Of a stretch of DNA of 42,454 bases, positions 773-33,168 are shown in pieces. The position numbers and the translations under genes were made by a program. Source of the stretch: Actinomycetes bacterium (GTDB taxonomy: Bacteria > Actinomycetota > Acidimicrobiia > Acidimicrobiales > Palsa-688). The stretch spans positions 1-42,454 of the forward strand of contig JAJZAM010000006.1 in NCBI GenBank assembly GCA_021799445.1, written 5' to 3'. The stretch's first letter is position 1. Every line of letters begins with the position of its first letter. The notes under the pieces were generated by a model. That model searched no databases. It was not told the origin of the DNA and was given only the letters and a program-made list of their open reading frames with translations.

Positions 773-2557
773 TCAGCTTTCGTAGGTGTTAGCGATGTTG
801 GAAGCTCCGTAGTCGGGCGGGGCGTTCCACTTCTGGGTGAGGTTCCCGTCGCAAGCGGCGACCTGCAGCATCGTCCAGCTTGCACCTGATCCCGGGGTGT
901 CCGAAGGGTACACGATCCCGTAAGCGTCGTTAGCTTGCAGACAGTAGCCGCGGTAGTCCTGGTAAGTGTAGATGATCGACGAGCCACCCGTCGAGCCGTT
1001 GGAGGTCCAGATCTGCGCAGAGTTGCCGACCAGAGCGGCCTGCCCTTGGCTTGCGAGGTTGGAGATTAGCGTCGAGCAGTTCTGCACTGTGACGGCGGTG
1101 GCACCAGCCGACGGGTAGACGATCGGGTACCCACCCAACGGTTTGTCGGCGGGATCAGTCGCAGGGTCGCTGGCGGTCGTCAGGCAATAGGGTGTTACCC
1201 CGCCGGGCGGGGCTAGGGGATTGGACGGACAACCGGTGCTGGCGTTCTGGGGGGTGTATAGAAGTACGGCGTTGGCCGGCTCGCCGTAAGCGCTTAGCGG
1301 CACGGTGCACCACCTCTGGTTCCAGATCGGATATGCGGAGGTGTCAGGAAACTGCTTGCAGGTGTAGTCGATGAGAGCACCGAAGTTGACGTCCTGGTTG
1401 GTGACGTCGATGCAGCGGCCGAACTCAGCGTAGTTGACCAGCTGATCTGTGGGGCCGATAGTCCCTGGGACCGGGTTCGAACCGCCAGCACCGACTGTCG
1501 CCTGCATGGTCCACGTCTGGTCGGTAGCGAAGCCACCTTGTCCGCAGTTATTGCCGATGTAGGTCGCCGACCCATTCGGGTTGTAATTGGCGGGACTGTT
1601 GGACGGTATCGAGTTGTCAAGGCACCAGCCGTTGGGACCACCCGAGGAGTTGACGCCTTCGATAGCGTCGGAGTCGTTGACACCCCACTGCTGGGACAGT
1701 GGGGCCGGTGACACGCAGGGCGCAACGTAGACGGTGGTGCTCGAAGGGCTCGTCGCGGTTGTGGACCCGCTCTGGCCCGGGTCGACGAGGCAGTAGGCGA
1801 CGCCGCCGACGAAGGTTTGCAACGTGTAGTCCTGCTGGTAGGAGAAAACGAGCGATGGGCTCGGGTTCGAAGGGTTGCAACTCGACGACATGACCACTTC
1901 GTAGCCAGTGGAGAATGCCGGGCCCACCTGGACGCAGAATGTTTGGCCGGTGGCGTCCGGGTAGGTGTAGATCAGCCCTCCGGGGATGTTGGCATCTGTC
2001 GGGGACGAGAAGTCGTAGGTGGAGTTTTCAGTCCGTGTTATGCTGCCGGAGGCTGAAAGGTTGTCGCCTCCCACTGAAGTTATTAGCGCATCTTTAACGC
2101 TGAACGCAACGGTCGACGACGACGGCAGAGGGCCGGATCCTGTCACGCACGAAGCGGCCGGGATCGTGCCGGCCGCTGTCTGAAGCTGGTAGGAGATAGT
2201 CGCCTTGTAAGAGATCGTCTTGCCGTCCGAGCTGCTGGATGACACGGTCCCGTCGATGGGACCGCAAGGCAGGGCTGCGACGTCGCCGACCACGTGAGAG
2301 CCGGTGCCGGTGGTCGCCGAGCGGATAGCGGCTACTGCCGCTTGGACTCCGGCGAGGGCGCCTTGCAGGGCGTCGTTGCGCTGGTTGGATTGGGTCGCCT
2401 GGCCGAGACTGAAGAACGCCTGATTGGCGACGGAAGCGAGGACGATAGAGGCGATCATGAGCAGCGTTAGAGCCATGACAAGCGAACCGCGTTCGTCGTC
2501 GCGGCGTGCTAGGCGTTGGCAGTCGTATAGGCGGGTGGTCGAAGACGTTAGCGTCAT
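773..2557 (-). CDS. Prepilin-like (PilX-type) protein with ricin-B-like lectin region
   Basis: A protein of about 594 residues. Near the N-terminus a hydrophilic leader runs into ERGSLVMALTLLMIAS (about residues 20-40), which resembles the N-terminal helix of PilX/PulK-type minor pilins but lacks a textbook GFTLxE cleavage motif. The long C-terminal part is rich in Ser, Gly, Asn and Cys. It has repeated QxW-type motifs (QQW, QRW, QKW) with GxCID and YCLQ segments, as in ricin-B beta-trefoil lectins, so a carbohydrate-binding role outside the cell is likely. The ATG at 2557 is chosen because it overlaps the stop of the upstream prepilin gene by 4 bp (ATGA); a longer frame to 2779 would run deep into that gene. 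It is last in a three-gene prepilin operon and converges with gcvPB. Lectin assignment is from motifs only. Confidence 0.72.
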   Translation of the reverse strand: MTLTSSTTRLYDCQRLARRDDERGSLVMALTLLMIASIVLASVANQAFFSLGQATQSNQRNDALQGALAGVQAAVAAIRSATTGTGSHVVGDVAALPCGPIDGTVSSSSSDGKTISYKATISYQLQTAAGTIPAASCVTGSGPLPSSSTVAFSVKDALITSVGGDNLSASGSITRTENSTYDFSSPTDANIPGGLIYTYPDATGQTFCVQVGPAFSTGYEVVMSSSCNPSNPSPSLVFSYQQDYTLQTFVGGVAYCLVDPGQSGSTTATSPSSTTVYVAPCVSPAPLSQQWGVNDSDAIEGVNSSGGPNGWCLDNSIPSNSPANYNPNGSATYIGNNCGQGGFATDQTWTMQATVGAGGSNPVPGTIGPTDQLVNYAEFGRCIDVTNQDVNFGALIDYTCKQFPDTSAYPIWNQRWCTVPLSAYGEPANAVLLYTPQNASTGCPSNPLAPPGGVTPYCLTTASDPATDPADKPLGGYPIVYPSAGATAVTVQNCSTLISNLASQGQAALVGNSAQIWTSNGSTGGSSIIYTYQDYRGYCLQANDAYGIVYPSDTPGSGASWTMLQVAACDGNLTQKWNAPPDYGASNIANTYES

Positions 2558-3222
2558 GACAGGGGGCACGCCGAGGAGGTAGGAGGAGTAGCCGCAATCG
2601 AGTTGACGGCGGTGAAGGTGACCTGAGCGGTGGAAGAGACAGCCGGCGACGTGCCGGCGGAGGACGAAGCGAGCGACACGGTCACTTGTTGGCGGACAAT
2701 AGATCCGCTGGCAGCGTCGGGAACTGTGAAGACCGCCTCGGAAGGCGACGTCGACAGGCCCGAGCCGATGATCGACCATCCGCTAGCTCCTGACACGGAT
2801 CCCGTAGCGTTCCAAGTCCGCTGTTCGAGCAGTCCTTTGGCGGTGTCGTAGAGGAGCTCGGTGCACTGCGGGTGACCCAGCGTAGCGGTGGTGTATGTAG
2901 AGTAGAAGGTGAGAGCGTAGTCGCCGCTCGGAACGGACGAGGCGTCGCTCGGAGCTGACGAGCAGGGCCCTGCACTGGCGCTCGTCCAGCCGTAGGGACA
3001 GTCGATGGTCGCTGCGTAACGGACCTCTTTGTCCAAGGCTATGAAGGCGAGGCCAACTTGCGACGAAGTGCGATCCAAGGAGGCCGCCTCGTTCTGCTGT
3101 GTCATGACGTTTACCAACGACACGAGCACCATCACCGCTACCAGAGCCATGATCGCGGTAGTTACGAGGAGCTCTATGAGGGTGAAACCCTCCTCGGTTC
3201 GCGATTCGCTCACAGCGACCAT
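2554..3222 (-). CDS. Type IV prepilin-like protein (GFTLIE motif)
   Basis: A minor pilin of about 222 residues. The N-terminus carries the class III leader and cleavage site EEGFTLIELL (about residues 10-19) followed by a hydrophobic helix of about 20 residues (VTTAIMALVAVMVLVSLV). A prepilin peptidase would cut before the Phe, and the helix would pack into the pilus core. The remainder is a Ser/Thr/Ala-rich globular part with a Cys pair (CPYG...PCSS). The start is ambiguous. ATG at 3222 has a purine run too close to it. GTG at 3213 overlaps the previous stop as GTGA and has AAGG about 10 nt upstream, so it may be the true start. It sits between two other prepilin genes with overlapping ends, which suggests translational coupling. 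Confidence 0.82.
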   Translation of the reverse strand: MVAVSESRTEEGFTLIELLVTTAIMALVAVMVLVSLVNVMTQQNEAASLDRTSSQVGLAFIALDKEVRYAATIDCPYGWTSASAGPCSSAPSDASSVPSGDYALTFYSTYTTATLGHPQCTELLYDTAKGLLEQRTWNATGSVSGASGWSIIGSGLSTSPSEAVFTVPDAASGSIVRQQVTVSLASSSAGTSPAVSSTAQVTFTAVNSIAATPPTSSACPLS

Positions 3223-4532
3223 GCCTTGGTAGCGCCGTAGGCAGTCACGTTGGAGCTCCACGTGCTTTGCGAACCGGAAGCGTAAAGGGTGGCCACCTGT
3301 GAGCTCGACAACGCCGACGGGAAGAACGCCGCATCTGAAAGCGAACCTTGCAGGAACGCCTGGCCGGGGTGGTCTGGCCATCCGGAGGAGTTGTCCCAGC
3401 CGATGTTCCAGTAACCAGTATAAGGTTGGGAAGATGTAACAGACGAGTTGGAGGCCACTAGCGAACCGTCGACGTATAGGGCCATGCCCGAAGTGGTGCT
3501 GATCGACGCGACCGCTAGGTGCCAGTCTCCGCCGTCGAGGCTGTCGGGGCTATTGATCTCCACCGTATTGCCGGTGTAGACGCCGAACACGACGCGACCT
3601 TTGTTGTCCACCCAGAGCATCTTGTCCCAGCTGGTGCCACCCGACCCGGTGGCCGTGTCTGCGAAACCCATCAGCACCCCAGGGTTGGAAGTCTTGAACC
3701 ATATTGCTATCGTGAAACTGGTGTTAGAGGGTCCAGGCGAGCTGTTGAGCTCCGATCCATACGATCCCGAGTCGCCTGAGAAGTTGACCGAGCTCGAGGA
3801 AGGGGTGGAGTCGGCGAAAGGCCCGGAGTTCGCTTGGTCTGATGCCCCGTAGACACACATGGGGTCGCCCGCCGCTGCGCTGTCGGCTAACGCCGTAGCC
3901 CCCGGCGGGCATAGCGGTGTCGGCGCCGTCCCCGACGGGAGGACCTCGCTGAACTTCGGGTCGTTACCGGTGCTGATGAGGCTGGACGTGACGTAATCGC
4001 ACACGTTGCCGGCACAGACACCTTTGGCGGGCCACGACACGGCGACGACCGCCCGCACCATCGGAGCGGCCGAGCTGGTCGTAGTGCACGAGGCACCGGC
4101 CGCGGCCTGCTGAAGGTAGCAGACCCCCATGAAAGTCTGCGTGGTGAAGGTGTAATTGTCGATCACGGTAGTGGTCGACAATGGCACCGCCGGTGTGCCG
4201 GCGCTGACGTCGAACTGGTCGGTGTTGGCCAGGCTTACACCTGCCGGTAACGTGGCGGGCCCACCGGAGCTTCTGCCGTCTAGGAGTTGGCTCGGGTCTA
4301 TGGCTCGTGTGAAGTCGAGGGCGGTGTCGGCGAGGACGGACGCGACTTGGCGGATCCGCCCCTGGTTGCCTGCCTGGGTTCCGCTCGTAGCAGCGGAGAG
4401 GAACATCGGGAACAACAAGGCGAGTATCGCCACTGCGATAACGGTCTCTACCAGGGTGAAGCCACTGTCGCTGTCGGCCGCACCTTTACGTCTTCGACGC
4501 ATAGCGCGTTTCGCTATGTGGACCCAGCTCAC
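3210..4532 (-). CDS. Type IV prepilin-like protein with C-terminal LamG-like domain
   Basis: A 440-residue protein, first of the three prepilin genes. A basic leader of about 23 residues ends at DSGFTLVETVIAVAILAL, a classical prepilin peptidase site with a hydrophobic helix. After a Ser/Thr-rich middle with several cysteines, residues of about 245-430 look like a LamG/concanavalin-like jellyroll: FTIAIWFKTS, GRVVFGVY, DGGDWHLAVASI, GMALYVDGSLVAS and GSLSDAAFFPSALSSSQV are the usual strand signatures. LamG domains commonly bind glycans or other surface ligands, so this could be an adhesive pilus subunit. It lies 105 bp downstream of the response-regulator gene on the same strand, with no gene between, so it may have its own promoter or be co-transcribed. 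The modular pilin-plus-lectin design is unusual. Confidence 0.8.
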   Translation of the reverse strand: MSWVHIAKRAMRRRRKGAADSDSGFTLVETVIAVAILALLFPMFLSAATSGTQAGNQGRIRQVASVLADTALDFTRAIDPSQLLDGRSSGGPATLPAGVSLANTDQFDVSAGTPAVPLSTTTVIDNYTFTTQTFMGVCYLQQAAAGASCTTTSSAAPMVRAVVAVSWPAKGVCAGNVCDYVTSSLISTGNDPKFSEVLPSGTAPTPLCPPGATALADSAAAGDPMCVYGASDQANSGPFADSTPSSSSVNFSGDSGSYGSELNSSPGPSNTSFTIAIWFKTSNPGVLMGFADTATGSGGTSWDKMLWVDNKGRVVFGVYTGNTVEINSPDSLDGGDWHLAVASISTTSGMALYVDGSLVASNSSVTSSQPYTGYWNIGWDNSSGWPDHPGQAFLQGSLSDAAFFPSALSSSQVATLYASGSQSTWSSNVTAYGATKAWSL

Positions 4533-4637: not shown

Positions 4638-5351
4638 CTAGGTCAGAGGGTCCTGGGGTGGGGGAGTTACGAGCCGGTATCCGACCCCGCGGACGGTCTG
4701 GATTAGAGGTGTCATCCCCGGCAGGTCGATCTTGCGCCGGAGGTAACCTACGTACACGTCGACTACGTTGGAGCCTGGCTCGAAGCTGTAGCTCCACACG
4801 TTGTTTAGGATTTGGGATCGTGAGAGAACCTGGCCGGGATGTCTCATGAAGAGCTCCAGGAGTACCCACTCTCGCGGGGCGAGCTCGATTCGGCGACCGT
4901 TACGGCTAGCTACTTTTGTAAGCAAGTCGAGGCTGAGGTCTCCCACCCTCAAATCGGTTGCGGAGGGCTCTCCCGGCCTGCGGCAGACAGCCCGAATACG
5001 TGCTAAGAGCTCATCGAAGGCAAACGGTTTGGTCATGTAGTCGTTAGCACCAGAGTCGAGGCCTCTTATCTTGTCCTCTAGCTCGTCCCGGGCGCTCAAT
5101 ACGATCACGGGAGCGAGGAAACCGTGATTGCGGGCATCGCGCAGCAGGTCCACTCCGTCGCCGTCAGGGAGTCGGAGGTCGAGAAGGACGAGGTCGAAGC
5201 CCATAGAGGACGCTGCAAGCCAGTGTTCCGCCGCGGCCTTGGTCGGCGCGACCGTGACGGCGTGACCCTCGCAGCGGAGGCCTTTTTCTAGGAAGGACGC
5301 GATTCGGTCGTCGTCCTCGACGACAAGGACCTGCAACTCAAGCTCCTCCAA
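4638..5351 (-). CDS. OmpR/PhoB-family response regulator
   Basis: A 237-residue DNA-binding response regulator. The receiver domain covers about residues 7-120. It has the acidic pocket (VVEDDD), phospho-acceptor Asp58 in LLDLRLPDGDG, Ser86 in VLSAR and Lys108 in TKPF. The winged-helix effector domain (about 135-230) shows the usual APREWVLLELFMRHPGQVLSR and TVRGVGYRL signatures. The gene overlaps the 3' end of the histidine kinase gene by 14 bp, so the two form a two-component pair. The prepilin operon follows directly downstream and the glycan operon lies upstream on the same strand, so these are reasonable candidate targets (inference). Confidence 0.95.
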   Translation of the reverse strand: MEELELQVLVVEDDDRIASFLEKGLRCEGHAVTVAPTKAAAEHWLAASSMGFDLVLLDLRLPDGDGVDLLRDARNHGFLAPVIVLSARDELEDKIRGLDSGANDYMTKPFAFDELLARIRAVCRRPGEPSATDLRVGDLSLDLLTKVASRNGRRIELAPREWVLLELFMRHPGQVLSRSQILNNVWSYSFEPGSNVVDVYVGYLRRKIDLPGMTPLIQTVRGVGYRLVTPPPQDPLT

Positions 5352-6783
5352 CCTGGTTGTAACTCGGTGACCACGATGGATCGGGCAGCGGAACCGCTAG
5401 GACTGCGCGACAGCCACCTAAGGGCGAGTCGCCGATGTCGACGTACCCTCGATGTGCGCGCGCAACAGCTGCGACGATGGCCAACCCAATACCGGAACCT
5501 CCTGGGTGGCTCTGAGCTGTCCGGCCGAAGCGGTCGAGGATCGTGTGACGGACGTCCTTTGGAACACCGGGACCCGAGTCGTCCACGACCAGCTCGATGT
5601 AGCGTTCGTTGTTGCGCGACGCCAAGACAGCCGACAGCCGTATCGTGTCGGCCTGTGAGGTGGCCTTAGCAGCGTTGTCGACAAGATTGAGGAGAGCGCT
5701 CCTTAGTTTGTCGAGGTCGGCGACGATCACGATGTCTGGGATGTCTCCTACATCCCATCTTCGCGGCGCAAGTGCTCTCGCCACTTGGTCGACGTCGAGG
5801 ATCAAGGAGCGCACGTCTACTGGGCAAGCGTCCTTTAGGTCGCCTTCGATGGACCGTCCGAGCAGGAGGAGCCTCTCGATCATCCTGCGCATATGGTCGA
5901 GTTCGTCTATGACGGCGACGACGATCTCCTTGCGCGATAGCGGGTCTGCGAGATCGTCGTTGCTCATGACCTCCAAGTGACCTCTAGCGGCGGTGAGAGG
6001 CGTCCGCAGCTGGTGCGACACGGTCGCCATCATCTGCTTCTGGGCCTTCATAGTCGATTCGATCTTGTCGATCATCGCGTTGAACGTCGCTGTCATCTCG
6101 CCCACCTCGTCCCTGGAATCCTGGGCGTCCAGTCGCATGCCCAAGTCCCCTTCGAGCGCGATCCCGGCGGCCGTTCGAGTTAACCTGCGGACCGTGCCGA
6201 GGAGGCGACGTAACAGCAGGTAGACGCTGACGAACGCAGCGATCACGGCGATTGCACCTTCGGCGACGGCTAGCTCCACCGCCCGTCGCTGAACAGCCTG
6301 GAAGTTTACAAGGCTGCCGGTTGTGAAGAAGGTGCCGGCCGGCCGTCCGGCTACGTCGATCGGCACTGCGAGGACAAGCGTCGGGACGCCAGCAACCGTG
6401 ACCGTTCTCATCGTCGACTGCGAGGGAGCCGCCACGCTTAGCGACCGGACGACGGGCACGGACATGAGAGCAGCCACCCCTGGGGAGCCCAGCGTCGTGT
6501 GAAAGGCGGGAAGGGCGATCGCCAGTTGATCACCGCCTGTCTCGCCGTGGGAGGCAAGGAAGGCCCGAGCGAAAGCGGGAAGCCTTTGCGACGGGGGCCT
6601 TGTTGCGGCCGCTCGGTCGAAAGCCGCGACGTTTTCGAAAAGATCCCGCGTGATGGTCGCCCGATAGCGATTCGAGAACTCCAAGGTGAGCTGCAGCGCC
6701 ACGATCGCGAGCACTGACGCGACCACCAGCGCGTGAAAGCCAGCGAGCCTTCCTACCGTGCCGATGTGCGGCAGCCGACGCAA
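5338..6783 (-). CDS. HAMP-domain sensor histidine kinase
   Basis: A 481-residue membrane sensor kinase, partner of the overlapping OmpR-type regulator. A first membrane helix lies at about 13-33 and a second at about 168-192, enclosing an extracytoplasmic sensor segment of about 130 residues with no recognised domain. A HAMP linker follows, then the HisKA dimerisation domain with phospho-acceptor His257 in ATVSHQLRTPL. The HATPase domain shows the N box (LLNLVDNAAKAT), G1 (DDSGPGVP) and G2 (GGSGIGLAIV). It begins 8 bp downstream of the Ser/Thr-rich anchored protein gene, which suggests they share a transcript. The input signal cannot be inferred from sequence, but the location points to control of surface glycan or pili. 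Confidence 0.94.
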   Translation of the reverse strand: MRRLPHIGTVGRLAGFHALVVASVLAIVALQLTLEFSNRYRATITRDLFENVAAFDRAAATRPPSQRLPAFARAFLASHGETGGDQLAIALPAFHTTLGSPGVAALMSVPVVRSLSVAAPSQSTMRTVTVAGVPTLVLAVPIDVAGRPAGTFFTTGSLVNFQAVQRRAVELAVAEGAIAVIAAFVSVYLLLRRLLGTVRRLTRTAAGIALEGDLGMRLDAQDSRDEVGEMTATFNAMIDKIESTMKAQKQMMATVSHQLRTPLTAARGHLEVMSNDDLADPLSRKEIVVAVIDELDHMRRMIERLLLLGRSIEGDLKDACPVDVRSLILDVDQVARALAPRRWDVGDIPDIVIVADLDKLRSALLNLVDNAAKATSQADTIRLSAVLASRNNERYIELVVDDSGPGVPKDVRHTILDRFGRTAQSHPGGSGIGLAIVAAVARAHRGYVDIGDSPLGGCRAVLAVPLPDPSWSPSYNQVGGA

Positions 6784-6791
6784 CGAGGGCC

Positions 6792-7382
6792 TCAGTTGTC
6801 CCTCGATGATGTTGGAGGGACCGCAGTCGTCGAAGTCGACGACGAGTCTGGGGACGGCGACGTGGCATCGCCGGAAGAAGAGCTCGCCGGCATCCCAGAT
6901 GTAGTCGTCGTCGCAGGCTTCGCAGGAGCGACGCTGGTTGTCGGCGAACTTTCTTTGGTGGCCACCTCCACGACATCACGGGATGGCTGTACCACCAATG
7001 GCGACGACCCCATCCCGCTCGGATATGGTGCCACGGTCGCGGGCGGGGAGTGAGAGATCCCAGACGGTGTGACAGTTGACGTCGTGGTAGTCGCGTCCGG
7101 CGCGCCGGGTGCGGGGCCAGGCCACGAGTCCTTAGGAGGGGAACTTTGAGTCACGTTGGAGGCCTGGGATAGTCGCGAAGTCGAAGCTTGTTCTGACTGC
7201 GTGACGGCGGGAGACGACGCATCTATGGGTCCTGGTAGGGGCCTCGACGTGATCTTGAAGCTCGTGCCTGCGATGGCGGCGGCCGCAACTGCGAAGACCA
7301 GAAATCCGACGTAGAGCGCTGGAAGACCTCGTAGTGCCTTCGAGCTAGTCGTGAACGCTTTCAGCCAGTTCCACGTTGACAA
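6792..7382 (-). CDS. Membrane-anchored Ser/Thr/Pro-rich protein of unknown function
   Basis: A 196-residue protein with a short cytoplasmic N-terminus, one strong membrane helix (about residues 21-42, LYVGFLVFAVAAAAIAG) and a long external tail made almost entirely of Ser, Thr, Pro, Ala and Gly (for example DATTTTSTVTPSG). No enzymatic domain is visible. The tail is mucin-like and could be a stalk, a wall-spanning spacer or a substrate for O-glycosylation. It lies between the UDP-glucose dehydrogenase gene (16 bp upstream) and the histidine kinase gene (8 bp downstream), so it is probably part of the same operon and may act in glycan assembly or sensing. I do not recognise a named family. Confidence 0.7.
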   Translation of the reverse strand: MSTWNWLKAFTTSSKALRGLPALYVGFLVFAVAAAAIAGTSFKITSRPLPGPIDASSPAVTQSEQASTSRLSQASNVTQSSPPKDSWPGPAPGAPDATTTTSTVTPSGISHSPPATVAPYPSGMGSSPLVVQPSRDVVEVATKESSPTTSVAPAKPATTTTSGMPASSSSGDATSPSPDSSSTSTTAVPPTSSRDN

Positions 7383-17403: not shown

Positions 17404-19028
17404 CGAATCTCCTTCCTGCCTTCGAGCATCCCCCAGCCGTGATCTTATAGCGGTAACGCTGGAGGGCACCCGGCACGGTGCCGTGGATGCTTGGAAGGAG
17501 ATCCGATGGTGACTGCCCAGGAAGAGACCGACACCTTCGCCAAGGCCGGCGCCAGCTTCGAGGAGATGCTCTGTTGGCTCGAAGGGACCGAGTCGGCAGC
17601 TCTCACCCACGCGGAGCTCGAGGACCAGGTGGAGCGACGCGGCAGCGAGGTGCAACGCCTCATGTTCCAAGATCACCTGGACCTGCGCGCCCTTCGCGAG
17701 GACCGCGTCCGGGTCGTGGACGCTGTGGGGATCGTGCATGCGAGCGTGGAGCCCGCCCATGGCCGCCAGCTCTCGACGGTCGTTGGCACCGTGAGCGTCA
17801 GCCGCCTCGCCTACCGCCAGCTCGGACCCTCTAATCTGCACCCCGCCGCCGGCGTCTTGAACCTGCCGGTCGAGCTGCACTCGCACGGCCTGCGCCGATT
17901 GGCCGCGATCGAGTCGACCCGAGGATCCTTCGACGACGCCAGCGCGGCCATCGAACGATCGACTGGGGTAGCTGTCGCCAAGCGCCAAGTGGAGTCCCTC
18001 ACCGCCGCCGCAGCCGACGTCGAGGACTTCTACGCGCAGAGGGCCCCCGAGCCCGACACCAGCACCGACGTGGTGGTGATCTCCGTCGACGGCAAGGGGA
18101 TCGTCATGAGGCCCGACGCGCTGCGCGAAGCGACCGCGAAGGCAGCCTCCGCGGCGACCCGAAGGCTCGAGACCCGCCTGTCCAAGGGCGAGAAGCGCTA
18201 CCGAAAGCGGATGGCCGAGGTGGGTGCGGTCTACGACCTCGAGCCCGTAGCCCGCAGCGCCGCCGACGTGCTCGCCTCCAAGCACGACGACAGCGCGTCA
18301 GCGCCACCTGCACCCAAGGCCACCGGCAAGTGGGTGACCGCGAGTGTGGCCGAAGACGCCGCAGAGGTGGTCGCCCGTGTCTTTGACGAGGCAGAGCGGC
18401 GTGACCCAGGGCACCAGCGGTGTTGGGTAGCGCTCGTCGATGGTAACAACCATCAGATCGACCGTATCAACGCAGAAGCTGAGAACCGCGAGCTGACCGT
18501 CACCGTCCTCGTTGATCTGATCCACGTCATGGAGTACATCTGGTCGGCCGCGTGGTGCTTCTTCGCCCAAGGGGACCAGGCCGCGGAGGACTGGGTGCGC
18601 GCCAAGACCCTCGCCGTGCTCGAAGGCAACGCCCGTGATGTCGCCGCAGGGATCCGACGGAGAGCCAGCACCGCCCGCCTCACCAAGGCGAAGCGCAAGA
18701 ACGCCGACGCGTGTGCCACCTACCTGACCAACAAGGCTCCCTACTTCGACTACCCCAGCGCGTTGGCGGCCGGGTGGCCCATCGCCACGGGGATCATCGA
18801 AGGGACGTGTCGCTACCTTGTCGCTGACCGAATGGACATCACCGGCGCCCGCTGGTCGGTCGACGGCGCCGAAGCGGTTCTCAAGCTACGGGCCATACAA
18901 GCCAACGGCGACTTCAACGACTACTGGTGCTTCCATCTCGACCACGAGCGACAACGAGTCCACGAAACCCGCTACGCGGGCGGGGTCATTCCCCTCGCGG
19001 CGTAGGTCACTCCTGTAGCGCCGCACCC
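17241..19028 (+). mobile_element. ISKra4-type insertion sequence, 1788 bp, complete
   Basis: Both ends are defined by the sequence. The left end begins GGGCGCGGCGCTGTAGGAG and the right end, read inward, begins GGGTGCGGCGCTACAGGAG. They form imperfect inverted repeats of about 22 bp (17241-17262 and 19007-19028) with three differences. A 9-bp direct duplication flanks the element. It carries one intact transposase gene and, on the other strand near the left end, a short truncated passenger frame. The ends starting GGG, the transposase family and the length agree with what I recall of the ISKra4 family. The perfect target duplication and intact transposase point to a recent insertion. Confidence 0.95.
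17506..19005 (+). CDS. ISKra4-family transposase
   Basis: A 499-residue transposase that fills most of the 1788-bp element. ATG at 17506 is preceded by AAGGAG with a 6-nt gap. The C-terminal half carries the family hallmarks: VALVDGNNHQI with the central Asp, LIDLIHVMEYIW-like sequence (LVDLIHVMEYIWSAAWCFF), and near the end ATGIIEGTCRYLVADRMDIT followed by GARWSVDGAEAVLKLRA. These correspond to the DDE-type catalytic core of the ISKra4/ISAzba1 group. The frame is intact and the element has both ends, so it is likely still mobile. The preceding 265 bp of the element hold only the truncated passenger frame on the other strand. Confidence 0.95.
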   Translation: MVTAQEETDTFAKAGASFEEMLCWLEGTESAALTHAELEDQVERRGSEVQRLMFQDHLDLRALREDRVRVVDAVGIVHASVEPAHGRQLSTVVGTVSVSRLAYRQLGPSNLHPAAGVLNLPVELHSHGLRRLAAIESTRGSFDDASAAIERSTGVAVAKRQVESLTAAAADVEDFYAQRAPEPDTSTDVVVISVDGKGIVMRPDALREATAKAASAATRRLETRLSKGEKRYRKRMAEVGAVYDLEPVARSAADVLASKHDDSASAPPAPKATGKWVTASVAEDAAEVVARVFDEAERRDPGHQRCWVALVDGNNHQIDRINAEAENRELTVTVLVDLIHVMEYIWSAAWCFFAQGDQAAEDWVRAKTLAVLEGNARDVAAGIRRRASTARLTKAKRKNADACATYLTNKAPYFDYPSALAAGWPIATGIIEGTCRYLVADRMDITGARWSVDGAEAVLKLRAIQANGDFNDYWCFHLDHERQRVHETRYAGGVIPLAA

Positions 19029-25775: not shown

Positions 25776-27161
25776 TTACGCTGCGCAGCATGACAGTTTG
25801 GCGACGTCGGTGCGAAATGACTGGGCTGCCAGTTTGATGCCTTCGGCCATGGTCAGGTAGGGAGCCCAGGTGGAGGCGAGCTGGTCGACGGTCATGCCCG
25901 CTTCTAGGGCGTAGGTGGCTGCGAGTATGGCATCCCCGGCGTTCGCGGCGGCTATGTGGATGCCGACTACCCTCCCGGTTCCGACTTCGGCGACGATCTT
26001 GACCACTCCGCGGGTGTCCCGGTTGACGATGGCCCGGGGCACGTAAGCCAAGGGGAGCACCCGGCAGGTGCAGTCGATGCCAGCCTCGGCCACCTGGGCG
26101 TCTGTGAGACCGACCGCGGCCAGGTTCGGGGTGGTGAAGGTCACCCTGGGCAGGTGGGAATAGTTAACCTTGCGTCCGGCGTTGCTGAATGCGTTGTCGA
26201 CGACCATCGCCCCGTGCGCGCCGGCGACGTACACGAACTGGGCTGCACCGGTGACGTCCCCGGCCGCCCAGATCCTCGGGTTGGTGCTGCGCAACGTGTC
26301 GTCGACCACAACTTCGCCCGCCCTGCCGGTCCTCACTCCCACAGCTTCGAGCCCGAGGCCGGCGGTGAGCGGCCGGCGGCCCGTGGCCATCAAGATCGCG
26401 TCGGCGCGCACCTCCCGGCCGTCGGCGACCCGGGCGACCACCCTGCCATCTTCGCTTGCCACACCCGCAAGGCTCGCGGATGTCCAGATGTCGACGCCCT
26501 CGTCTGCGAGCACGCCGGCGATCACCTCTGACAGCTCGGGCTCTTCGCCCGGAGCGAGACGGTCCAAAGCTTCGATCAACGTCACGGAGCTGCCGAGACG
26601 GGCGAAGGTCTGGCCCATCTCCAAACCAACGTAGTTGCCACCCACCACGATCAGCGAGCCCGGCAGCTCGGCGAGCTCCAGCGCGGTCGTCGAAGTCAGA
26701 TAACCGGTCTCCTCCAAGCCAGGTACCGGCGGAACCCACGGAGCCGCCCCCGACGCGATCAGATACTGCGCCGCCTCGATGCGTTCACCTTCGACAACCA
26801 ACGCCGGGCCGTCCACGAAACGGGCGTCACCGCGGAGGACCTCCCAGCCGTAATCAAGCGCGAGATCCTCGTACTTCTCCCGGCGTAACATCCCCACGAT
26901 CTCGGCCTTCCCGCCGATCAGCGCAGCCATGTTGGTCGGAGCCGCCGAAGCCACGACACCAGGGAAGCGGTCCTCGACGCTGACATGGCGCGCCTCGGCG
27001 GCGGCTAAAAGAGCCTTGGAGGGGATGCAGCCGACGTTCACGCACGTCCCTCCCATCGTGGACCGCTCGACCATGACCGCCCGCAAGCCCCTCGTAGTCG
27101 CGGCGATCGCCGCAGCGAAACCCGCCCCTCCCGAACCGATGATCGCCAAGTCATAAACCAT
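25776..27161 (-). CDS. merA: Mercuric reductase
   Basis: A 461-residue flavoprotein disulfide reductase that reduces Hg(II) to volatile Hg(0) with NADPH. The FAD motif is IIGSGGAGFAAAIAA. The redox-active pair is Cys40 and Cys45 in GGTCVNVGCIPSK, and an NAD(P) motif is IVVGGNYVGLEMGQTFARLG. The C-terminal vicinal cysteines (Cys458-Cys459, KLSCCAA) distinguish MerA from dihydrolipoamide dehydrogenases by passing Hg(II) to the active site of the partner subunit. There is no N-terminal metal-binding (HMA) domain, as in many actinobacterial forms. ATG 27161 is chosen because AAGGGAG lies 6 nt upstream; an upstream ATG at 27203 has no such site. No merR lies next to it. Confidence 0.95.
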   Translation of the reverse strand: MVYDLAIIGSGGAGFAAAIAATTRGLRAVMVERSTMGGTCVNVGCIPSKALLAAAEARHVSVEDRFPGVVASAAPTNMAALIGGKAEIVGMLRREKYEDLALDYGWEVLRGDARFVDGPALVVEGERIEAAQYLIASGAAPWVPPVPGLEETGYLTSTTALELAELPGSLIVVGGNYVGLEMGQTFARLGSSVTLIEALDRLAPGEEPELSEVIAGVLADEGVDIWTSASLAGVASEDGRVVARVADGREVRADAILMATGRRPLTAGLGLEAVGVRTGRAGEVVVDDTLRSTNPRIWAAGDVTGAAQFVYVAGAHGAMVVDNAFSNAGRKVNYSHLPRVTFTTPNLAAVGLTDAQVAEAGIDCTCRVLPLAYVPRAIVNRDTRGVVKIVAEVGTGRVVGIHIAAANAGDAILAATYALEAGMTVDQLASTWAPYLTMAEGIKLAAQSFRTDVAKLSCCAA

Positions 27162-27200
27162 GAGTCGCTCCCTTGAATTAGTGATTGATATTCGAATAAA
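27162..27200 (-). promoter_or_regulatory. merA ribosome-binding site and palindromic candidate operator
   Basis: The perfect palindrome TATTCGAATA (27189-27198) lies in an AT-rich stretch 28 bp before the merA start. AT-rich dyads with TTCGAA or TTGAA cores are typical of ArsR/SmtB-family operators, and some actinobacterial mer operons are controlled by ArsR-type regulators. TAGTAT just upstream on the minus strand could be a -10 element. Confidence 0.5.
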
Positions 27201-27203
27201 CAA

Positions 27204-31083: not shown

Positions 31084-31122
31084 GCCCAATGAGATTCGTT
31101 GGGCGGGAACTATGCTGTTTGT
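31084..31122 (+). promoter_or_regulatory. Inverted repeat and leaderless-type promoter of the Xre-RES operon
   Basis: GCCCAA (31084-31089) and TTGGGC (31099-31104) form an inverted repeat with a 9-bp centre. TATGCT at 31110-31115 lies 7 bp before ATG 31123, the spacing expected for a leaderless transcript. The repeat probably binds the antitoxin for autoregulation. Confidence 0.5.
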
Positions 31123-31509
31123 ATGCCAGCCCGTGCCGCTAGGACCGCCACCGAACCCAAGGTTCGCTTCGAAGGTTTCAACGCAGGTATCGAAGCAAAA
31201 GTCGACCGGCTAGTGGCCGTGTACGGTGTCAACGGCCTCGCCTCTCTGCTCGTCGTTTCCGCGTCCCAGCCCACCCGGTGGCGCCAGGGCAAGGAACGCC
31301 CAGGCGAAACGGCGACCGGGCGGCTATTGGCCTTGGAGTACCTGACGTCGCGGCTCGCTGAGGTGTTCACTGCTCGCCAGGCCCAGGCCTGGCTGACCAG
31401 CCCCAATCCCTATCTGGGGGGGTCGACTCCCGCCCAAGTTTTCACCGACTTCGGCGGCCCGGCTGTCGAGGTGGCTATCTCCGCCGTCGAAGTCGGAGCC
31501 GCTGTATAG
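31123..31509 (+). CDS. Xre/MbcA/ParS-type antitoxin (DUF2384)
   Basis: A 128-residue protein of the antitoxin family paired with RES toxins. The N-terminal part (VDRLVAVYGVNGLASLLVVS, ASQPTRWRQGKE) is the helix-turn-helix-like region. The C-terminus has TARQAQAWLTSPNPYLGGST and PAQVFTDFGG, the conserved NPYLGG.P core of the MbcA/ParS domain that blocks the toxin's NAD site. The ATG at 31123 is preceded by a -10-like element only, with no ribosome-binding site. It is followed after 3 bp by the RES toxin gene, with a hairpin across the junction. Confidence 0.88.
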   Translation: MPARAARTATEPKVRFEGFNAGIEAKVDRLVAVYGVNGLASLLVVSASQPTRWRQGKERPGETATGRLLALEYLTSRLAEVFTARQAQAWLTSPNPYLGGSTPAQVFTDFGGPAVEVAISAVEVGAAV

Positions 31510-31524
31510 GCGGTGCGCCTATAC
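31504..31524 (+). promoter_or_regulatory. Perfect 9-bp hairpin across the antitoxin stop and toxin start
   Basis: GTATAGGCG, loop GTG, CGCCTATAC. The antitoxin stop codon TAG (31507-31509) is in the 5' arm and the toxin start codon GTG (31513-31515) is exactly the loop. It is likely to couple toxin translation to termination of antitoxin translation. Confidence 0.65.
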
Positions 31525-32070
31525 CGGGTTTGCCCAATCGATCCCGCCGCAGCGAGAGGAAACCCGTATCATCCCGGGTTCGTTCCCCGGTCCACCGGAC
31601 AGCACCGCGTCGACAACCCCGACCGCTACAACACGCTGTACCTGGCGGGCTGCCCCGCAGGGGCTGTCGCAGAACGTTTCGGTGCTTTCGCCCACTGGGG
31701 CGACTGGCTGCTGGAACACCCGAGAGGCTTCACCGCCCGGCTGATCACCTTCGACCTGTCCGACGACCGTCGAGTGCTCGACCTCGACAGCCCTGACGAG
31801 CTAGCGGCCAGAATGCTGCGCCCGTCGCGGGTAGTGACCCGTGACCGGACCACCACCCAGGCTTGGGCCGCCCGCGTACACGACGAGGCTCGCTGGTTTG
31901 GGGTGTCATGGTGGTCGTTCTACAATCCGGAGTGGACGGCCTGCGGGCTGTGGAGCCCGCCGGACGCGACCACCGTCGAGGGACTCGCAGTGGTGCACGT
32001 CGAAACGTTGGACGGCGACCATCCGGCCGTCGTCGAAGCTGGCCGCTGCCTCCTCCGGCGCTGGACCTGA
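31513..32070 (+). CDS. RES-domain toxin (MbcT-like NAD+ phosphorylase/glycohydrolase family)
   Basis: A 185-residue RES-domain protein. It starts MRLYRVCPID, with R, E and S family residues in RYNTLYLAGCPAGAVAERFG and later in WAARVHDEARWFGVSWWSF. Family members such as M. tuberculosis MbcT deplete cellular NAD+. The GTG start at 31513 lies 3 bp after the antitoxin stop, lacks a ribosome-binding site and is inside a hairpin loop, so translation probably depends on ribosomes finishing the antitoxin. The pair lies between two dif-like sites and just upstream of a tyrosine recombinase gene. Confidence 0.9.
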   Translation: MRLYRVCPIDPAAARGNPYHPGFVPRSTGQHRVDNPDRYNTLYLAGCPAGAVAERFGAFAHWGDWLLEHPRGFTARLITFDLSDDRRVLDLDSPDELAARMLRPSRVVTRDRTTTQAWAARVHDEARWFGVSWWSFYNPEWTACGLWSPPDATTVEGLAVVHVETLDGDHPAVVEAGRCLLRRWT

Positions 32071-32130: not shown

Positions 32131-33168
32131 ATGGCCGCCACCCGACGATTGTCTCCTGAGGCTCGCCTAGCGGAGGTCGTCGACAGCTGGCTGTTCCATC
32201 TGGGCGCTACTAAGCCGTCACCGCGCACTCTCGCCGCTTATCGTGCTGACGTCGAGGGCGTCGCCCGGCGTATAGACGCTGAAGGGGCGGCCGTTTTGGC
32301 CATCGAGGATTTGACGAAGCGGGCTTTGCGGGCCGCGTTCGCTTCGTGGGCGGCCGACCACGCAGCGTCCTCGGTGCTACGCGCTCACTCAGCGTGGTCG
32401 TCACTGTTTGATTTTCTCGTGGCCGAGGACCTCGTCGATGGCAACCCGATGTCTGCCGTGGGTAAACCCCGCCTGGCCCCGTCTGCTCCCAAAGCCATCA
32501 AAGCCGACGACGCAGCCGGCCGCCTTCTCGCTACAGCCTCAACCGCTGACAGCACCGCCAGGGACCCCTGGCCGGAGCGTGACACGGCGCTCGTCGCGCT
32601 GTTCTTGGTGTCAGGCATCCGCGAAGGAGAAGCCGTCTCGCTCGGCATGGCGTCCATTGCCGGTCCGGTGGGCGCCCGGCACCTAGAAGTGACCGGTAAA
32701 GGTAACAAGACCCGCTCCATCCCCATCGACCCGACCCTCGAAGAAGTCCTCGCCGCCTACCAGATCAGCCGGGCCGCCCGCTTCCCCGAACATGACCTAG
32801 ACCACCCGGCCACTCCCCTGCTCGTAGACACCCGAGGACGCCGCCTCGCCGCCCACCAAATTCGCTATCTCGTCGAACGCCTCTACACCAGAGCCGGCAT
32901 CCGCTCGCGGATACCCGCAGGGGCGATGGTCCACGCTCTGCGTCACAGTTTCGCCACAGACGCCCTCCAAGCTGGCGCCGACGTGGTGGAGCTCCAGGCC
33001 CTGCTCGGGCACGCCTCGCTTGACACCACGCGACGTTACCTCGACGCAAGCGGCGAAGGCCTCAGAGAGGTCATCAAAAGCCACCCGAGCCAAACCGCGC
33101 TACGAGAACACACACGCAAACAACAAAGCCGGCGATCGCCGCCCTCACCCATCCCCCAGCCGAGCTAG
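32131..33168 (+). CDS. Tyrosine recombinase (XerC/D-like integrase)
   Basis: A 345-residue recombinase with a complete active site. The N-terminal core-binding (SAM-like) domain covers about 10-110 (SPRTLAAYRADVEGVARRI). The catalytic domain has Arg164 (SGIREGE), Lys190 (VTGKGNKTR), His268 and Arg271 (HALRHSFAT), His294 (LGHASLDTTRRYL) and the nucleophile Tyr303. Length and layout are like XerC/XerD, which act on 28-bp dif sites. A dif-like site lies just before the ATG and a related one beyond the Xre-RES pair. There is little sign of a ribosome-binding site (TAGGG). The C-terminal tail after Tyr303 is basic and somewhat longer than in Xer proteins. Probably part of a mobile module rather than the housekeeping XerC/D, though this cannot be excluded. 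Confidence 0.92.
   Translation: MAATRRLSPEARLAEVVDSWLFHLGATKPSPRTLAAYRADVEGVARRIDAEGAAVLAIEDLTKRALRAAFASWAADHAASSVLRAHSAWSSLFDFLVAEDLVDGNPMSAVGKPRLAPSAPKAIKADDAAGRLLATASTADSTARDPWPERDTALVALFLVSGIREGEAVSLGMASIAGPVGARHLEVTGKGNKTRSIPIDPTLEEVLAAYQISRAARFPEHDLDHPATPLLVDTRGRRLAAHQIRYLVERLYTRAGIRSRIPAGAMVHALRHSFATDALQAGADVVELQALLGHASLDTTRRYLDASGEGLREVIKSHPSQTALREHTRKQQSRRSPPSPIPQPS

What the first reader, a model, noticed from the sequence alone, without database searches (positions are those of the whole stretch)
773..4532. Operon of prepilins carrying lectin-type modules
Three overlapping genes encode prepilin-like N-termini. One has a C-terminal LamG-like jellyroll and one has ricin-B-like QxW repeats. 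Minor pilins with glycan-binding tips are uncommon, and these follow a two-component system and a glycan synthesis/export operon on the same strand. The pili may bind the cell's own glycan or that of other cells.
Basis: partly seen in the sequence, partly recalled or inferred. Interest (0 to 1): 0.65.

Follow-up and report, generated by a model that had tools for sequence, protein, structure and literature searches.

The report
Type IV pilus tip with lectin-like modules
Three adjacent genes of an uncultured acidimicrobial bacterium encode the likely tip subunits of its type IV pilus, two of which carry sugar-binding-type domains; this is a new variant of the known "modular pilin" adhesins, notable because one domain is swapped between related species while the other stays fixed.

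Summary
Three overlapping minus-strand genes (4532-773) encode PilV/GspI-like, PilW/GspJ-like and PilX/GspK-like prepilins. The first ends in a LamG domain (Pfam E=3.8e-17; AlphaFold2 pLDDT 88.7; pentraxin/LamG fold). The third carries six QxW-type repeats that read as two tandem ricin-type trefoils, supported by orthologues over Pfam's cut-off, internal duplication and profile comparison; no usable trefoil model was obtained. The draft genome encodes PilB, PilT, PilC, PilA, PilM, PilO and PilD, and no secretin was found. Full-length trefoil PilX proteins occur in 10 of 32 sampled genomes of the family, one genome of another family of the order, and no other of 396 sampled across the phylum. 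The trefoil half is constant. The PilV C-terminus changes at one sharp boundary: LamG, Fn3, F5/8C or nothing. The LamG module's nearest relatives are secreted non-pilin proteins, so it was probably grafted. Best reading: a tip complex with one fixed and one exchangeable adhesion module. LamG-type modular pilins are already known (one is a proven lectin in Streptococcus sanguinis), so "uncommon" is not right. Binding to the cell's own glycan is untested and rests on gene order seen only in this genus.

The parts
3210..4532 (-). Gene A: PilV/GspI-like modular prepilin, 440 aa, GTG start
   Evidence: N_methyl PF07963 and Laminin_G_3 PF13385; GspI/PilV/ComGE weak hits
3918..4532 (-). Pilin part of A (residues 1-205), conserved in relatives
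   Evidence: alignment of 8 family members with one common end of the pilin part
3213..3917 (-). Grafted LamG module of A (residues 206-440; Pfam core 262-414 = 3749-3291)
   Evidence: AlphaFold2 model of residues 235-440; Foldseek; homology to non-pilin secreted proteins starts about residue 210 and runs to the last residue
2554..3222 (-). Gene B: PilW/GspJ-like prepilin, 222 aa, no extra module
   Evidence: N_methyl 1.3e-6; TIGR01711 gspJ 1.6e-5, below its cut-off
773..2557 (-). Gene C: PilX/GspK-like prepilin, 594 aa, lacks Glu5
   Evidence: GspK 0.016; PilX_N matched by 4 of 10 family members, below the cut-off where scores were shown
1472..1987 (-). First ricin-type trefoil of C, repeats R1-R3 (residues 191-362)
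   Evidence: orthologues hit PF00652 here; hhalign to independent ricin-type domains prob 76%, P=2.3e-5
803..1471 (-). Second ricin-type trefoil of C, repeats R4-R6 (residues 363-585); the R4 core CIDV...LIDYxCKQF...NQRW (1450-1298) is the most invariant stretch
   Evidence: invariant columns; PF00652 2.6e-4 in the L057 orthologue; hhalign T1/T2 P=2.8e-4
4638..5351 (-). OmpR-type response regulator directly upstream (105 bp gap), candidate regulator
   Evidence: PF00072, PF00486; same gene upstream in G001
5338..6783 (-). Histidine kinase of the same two-component system
   Evidence: PF00512, PF02518, PF00672

Best explanation
The trio is the I-J-K-type minor pilin set of a monoderm type IVa-like pilus. 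The three are processed by the prepilin peptidase, form a complex that starts the filament and stays at its tip, with the Glu5-less C protein as the cap. C presents two tandem ricin-type beta-trefoils, a fixed module with one well-conserved candidate sugar site (repeat R4). A presents an exchangeable module, here LamG, grafted on at the end of the pilin part. The pilus then attaches to glycan-bearing surfaces (other cells, polymers, biofilm matrix) and PilT can retract it. Shown here: gene anatomy, LamG fold, machinery, co-inheritance of the trio, module exchange. Inferred: trefoil fold of C in the window, tip location, glycan binding, retraction, the actual ligand.
For: Signal peptides and LamG; LamG model and fold match; gene order I-J-K with matching weak family hits; Glu5 missing in C, which fits the published rule that tip complexes are capped by a subunit without Glu5 (PMC10191384). 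Machinery: PilB (1.5e-141), a second PF00437 ATPase read as PilT, T2SSF/PilC, PilA, PilM, PilO, PilD; no secretin, with positive controls. A and B are the only N_methyl proteins found besides two major pilins. In G006 and G005 the trio lies near PilM-PilO and PilA. Pairwise distances of A, B and C across 8 genomes agree, r=0.97-0.98. Trefoil evidence. Module exchange in A. Precedent: S. sanguinis PilA-PilB-PilC with a proven lectin module (PMC9934059).
Against: No structure model of the trefoils (pLDDT 45); the window's own C has no Pfam ricin hit. Trio and assembly genes lie on different contigs of a 76.6% complete draft, so the link in this species is by inference. LamG and ricin-type folds also occur without sugar binding. 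No PilY1 was found, but that search had no working control. GspK/PilX_N similarity of C is weak.
Confidence: 0.62

Rival explanations
1. The trio is the minor pilin set, but its modules bind proteins or surfaces rather than glycans; LamG and trefoil folds are used as generic adhesion scaffolds.
For: Modules that replace LamG in relatives are Fn3 and F5/8C, which are not always glycan binders; several trefoil repeats are degenerate.
Against: Repeat R4 keeps an invariant C-x-D-V ... N-Q-x-W type pattern, as in sugar-binding ricin-type repeats (general knowledge); the LamG-type module of S. sanguinis PilC is a lectin (PMC9934059).
Confidence: 0.2
2. The pili bind the cell's own exopolysaccharide made by the upstream glycan operon, as a matrix- or neighbour-recognition device.
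For: Glycan synthesis/export genes and a two-component system precede the trio on the same strand; the response regulator is next to the trio in sister species G001 too.
Against: Outside the genus the trio has other neighbours (PilA/PilM/PilO and roadblock/GTPase genes) while the C module is kept; gene order alone is the only support.
Confidence: 0.1
3. The trio belongs to a secretion-type pseudopilus (type II-like) rather than a surface pilus.
For: Best family hits are GspI/GspJ/GspK.
Against: Two major-pilin genes, a PilT-like second ATPase, PilM/PilO and no secretin: a monoderm T4P set, not a T2SS.
Confidence: 0.04
4. The trio is a decayed or unexpressed set.
For: None beyond the draft state of the genome.
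Against: Intact reading frames kept in relatives with coupled divergence.
Confidence: 0.03

Closest known systems
Streptococcus sanguinis T4P tip complex PilA-PilB-PilC (PMC9934059, PMC8179133)
   Same: Monoderm T4P; small set of minor pilins, two of them modular; one module is a ConA-like/LamG-type lectin; one subunit (PilA) resembles the I subunit
   Different: Here the modular subunits are the I-like and K-like ones in a pilVWX/gspIJK-type gene order; the second module is a tandem ricin-type trefoil rather than vWA; no detectable sequence relation of the modules to any PDB chain
Modular pilins with PF13385 (global survey in PMC8179133)
   Same: N_methyl plus Laminin_G_3 architecture
   Different: Part of an operon in which the K-like partner also carries lectin-type domains, with the module exchanged between related genera
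PilV-PilW-PilX / GspI-GspJ-GspK minor (pseudo)pilins
   Same: Gene order, N-terminal types, Glu5 missing in the last one
   Different: Similarity is weak and under family cut-offs; C-terminal modules are extra
Myxococcus Kil (Tad) pilus interchangeable tips (PMC12075869)
   Same: Minor pilin trios with variable exposed domains at the tip
   Different: Tad machinery, predation function, several tips in one genome; here T4aP-like machinery and exchange between species

Membership tests
Type IV (class III signal peptide) prepilin | Leader ending in Gly, then ~20 hydrophobic residues with Glu5, matching PF07963 | tested here: met
   A and B meet it. C has G^S plus a hydrophobic stretch but no Glu5 and no PF07963 hit, as in PilX/GspK
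Modular pilin (definition of PMC8179133) | N-terminal pilin module plus a C-terminal domain not specific to T4P | tested here: met
   A: N_methyl + Laminin_G_3, boundary at about residue 205. C: only by homology, pilin-like N-terminus plus trefoils
Laminin_G_3 / LamG domain | PF13385 over cut-off; jellyroll sandwich | tested here: met
   63.3 bits vs 27.6; pLDDT 88.7 model matching pentraxin/LamG folds
Ricin-type beta-trefoil lectin (PF00652) | PF00652 match and three QxW repeats per trefoil | tested here: inconclusive
   Window C has no PF00652 hit; two orthologues over the cut-off, two halves homologous and profile match; no fold model
Ricin-type beta-trefoil lectin (PF00652) | Carbohydrate binding | not testable with these tools
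   needs a binding assay
PilX/GspK | PilX_N (PF14341) or GspK family over cut-off | tested here: not met
   PilX_N 0.0003-0.0008 in relatives, below cut-off; GspK 0.016 in window C: like PilX/GspK, not filed as a member
Type IV pilus system (monoderm) | PilB, PilC, PilD, major pilin, PilM/N/O in the genome | tested here: met
   (PilN only by reading of the PilM fusion tail, PilT by position)
Tip-located minor pilin complex | Complex formation and location at the filament end | not testable with these tools
   needs complex prediction, cryo-EM or pull-down

The most novel reading that the evidence does not exclude
A pilus tip built of one constant two-trefoil lectin cap (K-like position) and one hot-swappable adhesion slot (I-like position) into which unrelated secreted-protein domains are grafted at a fixed boundary, giving each acidimicrobial lineage its own surface specificity while the capping subunit stays the same.
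Probability: 0.35. Interest if true: 0.55.

Novelty: new variant of a known kind. Interest (0 to 1): 0.42.

Why it matters
Where modules sit in a T4P tip and how they are exchanged is known mainly from one species, S. sanguinis. This lineage gives a natural series in which the same three-subunit tip carries LamG, Fn3, F5/8C or no module on one subunit with the partner unchanged, so the contribution of one module to adhesion can be tested. It also points to pilus-based surface attachment in uncultured Acidimicrobiales, where the held literature has almost nothing.

Tried and rejected
AlphaFold2 of all of C with 10 sequences: pLDDT 45, not usable for the fold. PDB sequence search with the C profile and with the LamG module: no hit. 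PilY1 search of the genome: nothing, but the controls did not ring either, so no conclusion. Weak hits of the C profile in other families of the order (f10, f30, f47) and in other genomes of the family (e.g. G022, G007) cover only the pilin N-terminus and were not counted as trefoil PilX. LamG hits elsewhere in the order are mostly not pilins. One alignment row for L031 gene A was out of frame and was corrected before the distance analysis.

Full report
Observation. The three ORFs are present as described: A 4532-3210 (440 aa), B 3222-2554 (222 aa), C 2557-773 (594 aa), all on the minus strand. A and B overlap by 13 bp, B and C by ATGA. A and B have canonical class III signal peptides over Pfam's cut-off. 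C begins ...DERG^SLVMALTLLMIAS, which lacks Glu5; the NCBIfam hits are GspI-, GspJ- and GspK-like in that order but under the cut-offs. So the trio reads as the I-J-K (PilV-PilW-PilX) type of minor pilin set.

LamG. PF13385 matches A at 3.8e-17. A model built on 32 homologous domains has pLDDT 88.7 and pTM 0.88 and is a beta-sandwich. Foldseek's best PDB matches are pentraxin and LamG/LNS domains, best E about 1e-9, TM about 0.5-0.65.

Trefoils. The window's C has no Pfam hit. Its orthologues do: Ricin_B_lectin at 8.9e-10 (39.3 bits, cut-off 29) and 1.1e-6, and 2.6e-4 (below the cut-off) on the second half of the L057 orthologue. By eye there are six C..C..QxW-like units. A profile comparison of the two halves aligns R2-R3 with R5-R6 at P=2.8e-4. 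Both halves match a small independent set of ricin-type domains from other family genomes (scores 36.6 and 26.5; the best of 40 column shuffles each 16.0 and 16.7). Repeat R4 is the most invariant stretch in the family (C382, D384, V385, L395, I396, Y398, C400-P404, W412-R415). AlphaFold2 on the whole protein failed (pLDDT 45), so the trefoil fold is inferred, not modelled.

Machinery. The draft genome (3.0 Mb, 332 contigs, 76.6% complete) holds PilB, a second PF00437 ATPase read as PilT, T2SSF/PilC and a major pilin on one contig, a second major pilin with PilM and PilO on another and a prepilin peptidase. No secretin was found although the search rang in six control genomes, as expected for a monoderm. 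The trio's A and B are the only other N_methyl proteins found.

Relatives. Full-length C is found in 10 of 32 sampled genomes of the family, in one genome of family f45 of the same order, and in no other of 396 genomes spread over the phylum. Named records are Actinomycetes/Acidimicrobiales metagenome assemblies; one is labelled Acidobacteriota. In G006 the trio follows PilA-PilM-PilO and a roadblock-type module; in G005 it lies on the same contig as PilM/PilO and a major pilin. Distances of A's pilin part, B and C agree across 8 genomes (r=0.97-0.98; a rough measure, since the pairs are not independent).

Module exchange. A's pilin part ends at one boundary (...CDYVTSTLIS.ADPxF...). After it come LamG (G000, G001; the LamG tail is also seen in G002, whose contig starts inside A), one Fn3 (G006 at 2.7e-10; G008 and G028 weak, below the cut-off), four Fn3 (G014, truncated contig), a Thr-rich linker plus F5/8C (G005, 3.4e-9) or nothing (G024, G015). 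The LamG module's nearest relative outside the genus is in a non-pilin secreted protein of the same family (L063, 47% identity), followed by multi-LamG proteins of the order; the similarity starts at about residue 210, right after the pilin part, and runs to the last residue. Two other LamG pilins with different N-termini occur in the order (L070, L086). I infer that the LamG module was grafted onto an existing PilV-like pilin.

Mechanism. The published picture is that conserved minor pilins form a tip complex from which the filament grows, capped by a subunit without Glu5 (PMC10191384), and that in S. sanguinis two of three tip pilins carry adhesive modules, one a proven lectin (PMC9934059). 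The trio fits this picture with modules on the I-like and K-like subunits. Tip location, sugar binding and ligand are inferred.

'Uncommon' is not right: PF13385 is among the 15 most frequent modules of over 1,200 modular pilins (PMC8179133). The upstream glycan genes (epimerase, three glycosyltransferases, ABC exporter, UDP-sugar dehydrogenase) and two-component system are real, but the arrangement is not seen beyond the genus in the contigs at hand, so own-glycan binding has no independent support.

Verdict. A sound observation; a new variant of a known kind. The interesting part is the constant trefoil pilin paired with an exchangeable module on its partner.

Noticed in passing
L063, L064-L069, L071, L074, L077, L079: A group of secreted LamG proteins, several with similar N-terminal parts (TM segment, then ...SSGSLLLxDTIxxxxC...), in the order; apparent relatives or donors of the pilin LamG module
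   Followed up: partly
L057:736-1917: A sortase (PF04203, 1.3e-16) sits between the repeat-bearing ORF upstream and gene B in the f45 relative
   Followed up: no
window 31099-32070: Xre/MbcA-type antitoxin gene followed by a RES-domain toxin gene, a typical toxin-antitoxin pair
   Followed up: no
window 32131-33168: Tyrosine recombinase (Phage_integrase) next to the RES-Xre pair; may mark a mobile region
   Followed up: no
window 25776-27203: Pyridine nucleotide-disulphide oxidoreductase with a C-terminal CC motif, resembling mercuric reductase (Pfam supports only the oxidoreductase fold)
   Followed up: no
window 17491-19005: 504-aa ORF that reads like a transposase of an insertion sequence; no Pfam hit under 0.001
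   Followed up: no
window 6792-7382: 196-aa Ser/Thr/Pro-rich protein with one TM segment between the UDP-sugar dehydrogenase and the histidine kinase; no Pfam hit
   Followed up: no
L030:7141-8510: Roadblock/LC7 protein and a small GTPase-like gene between the pil genes and the trio in G006, a possible polarity or regulation module
   Followed up: no
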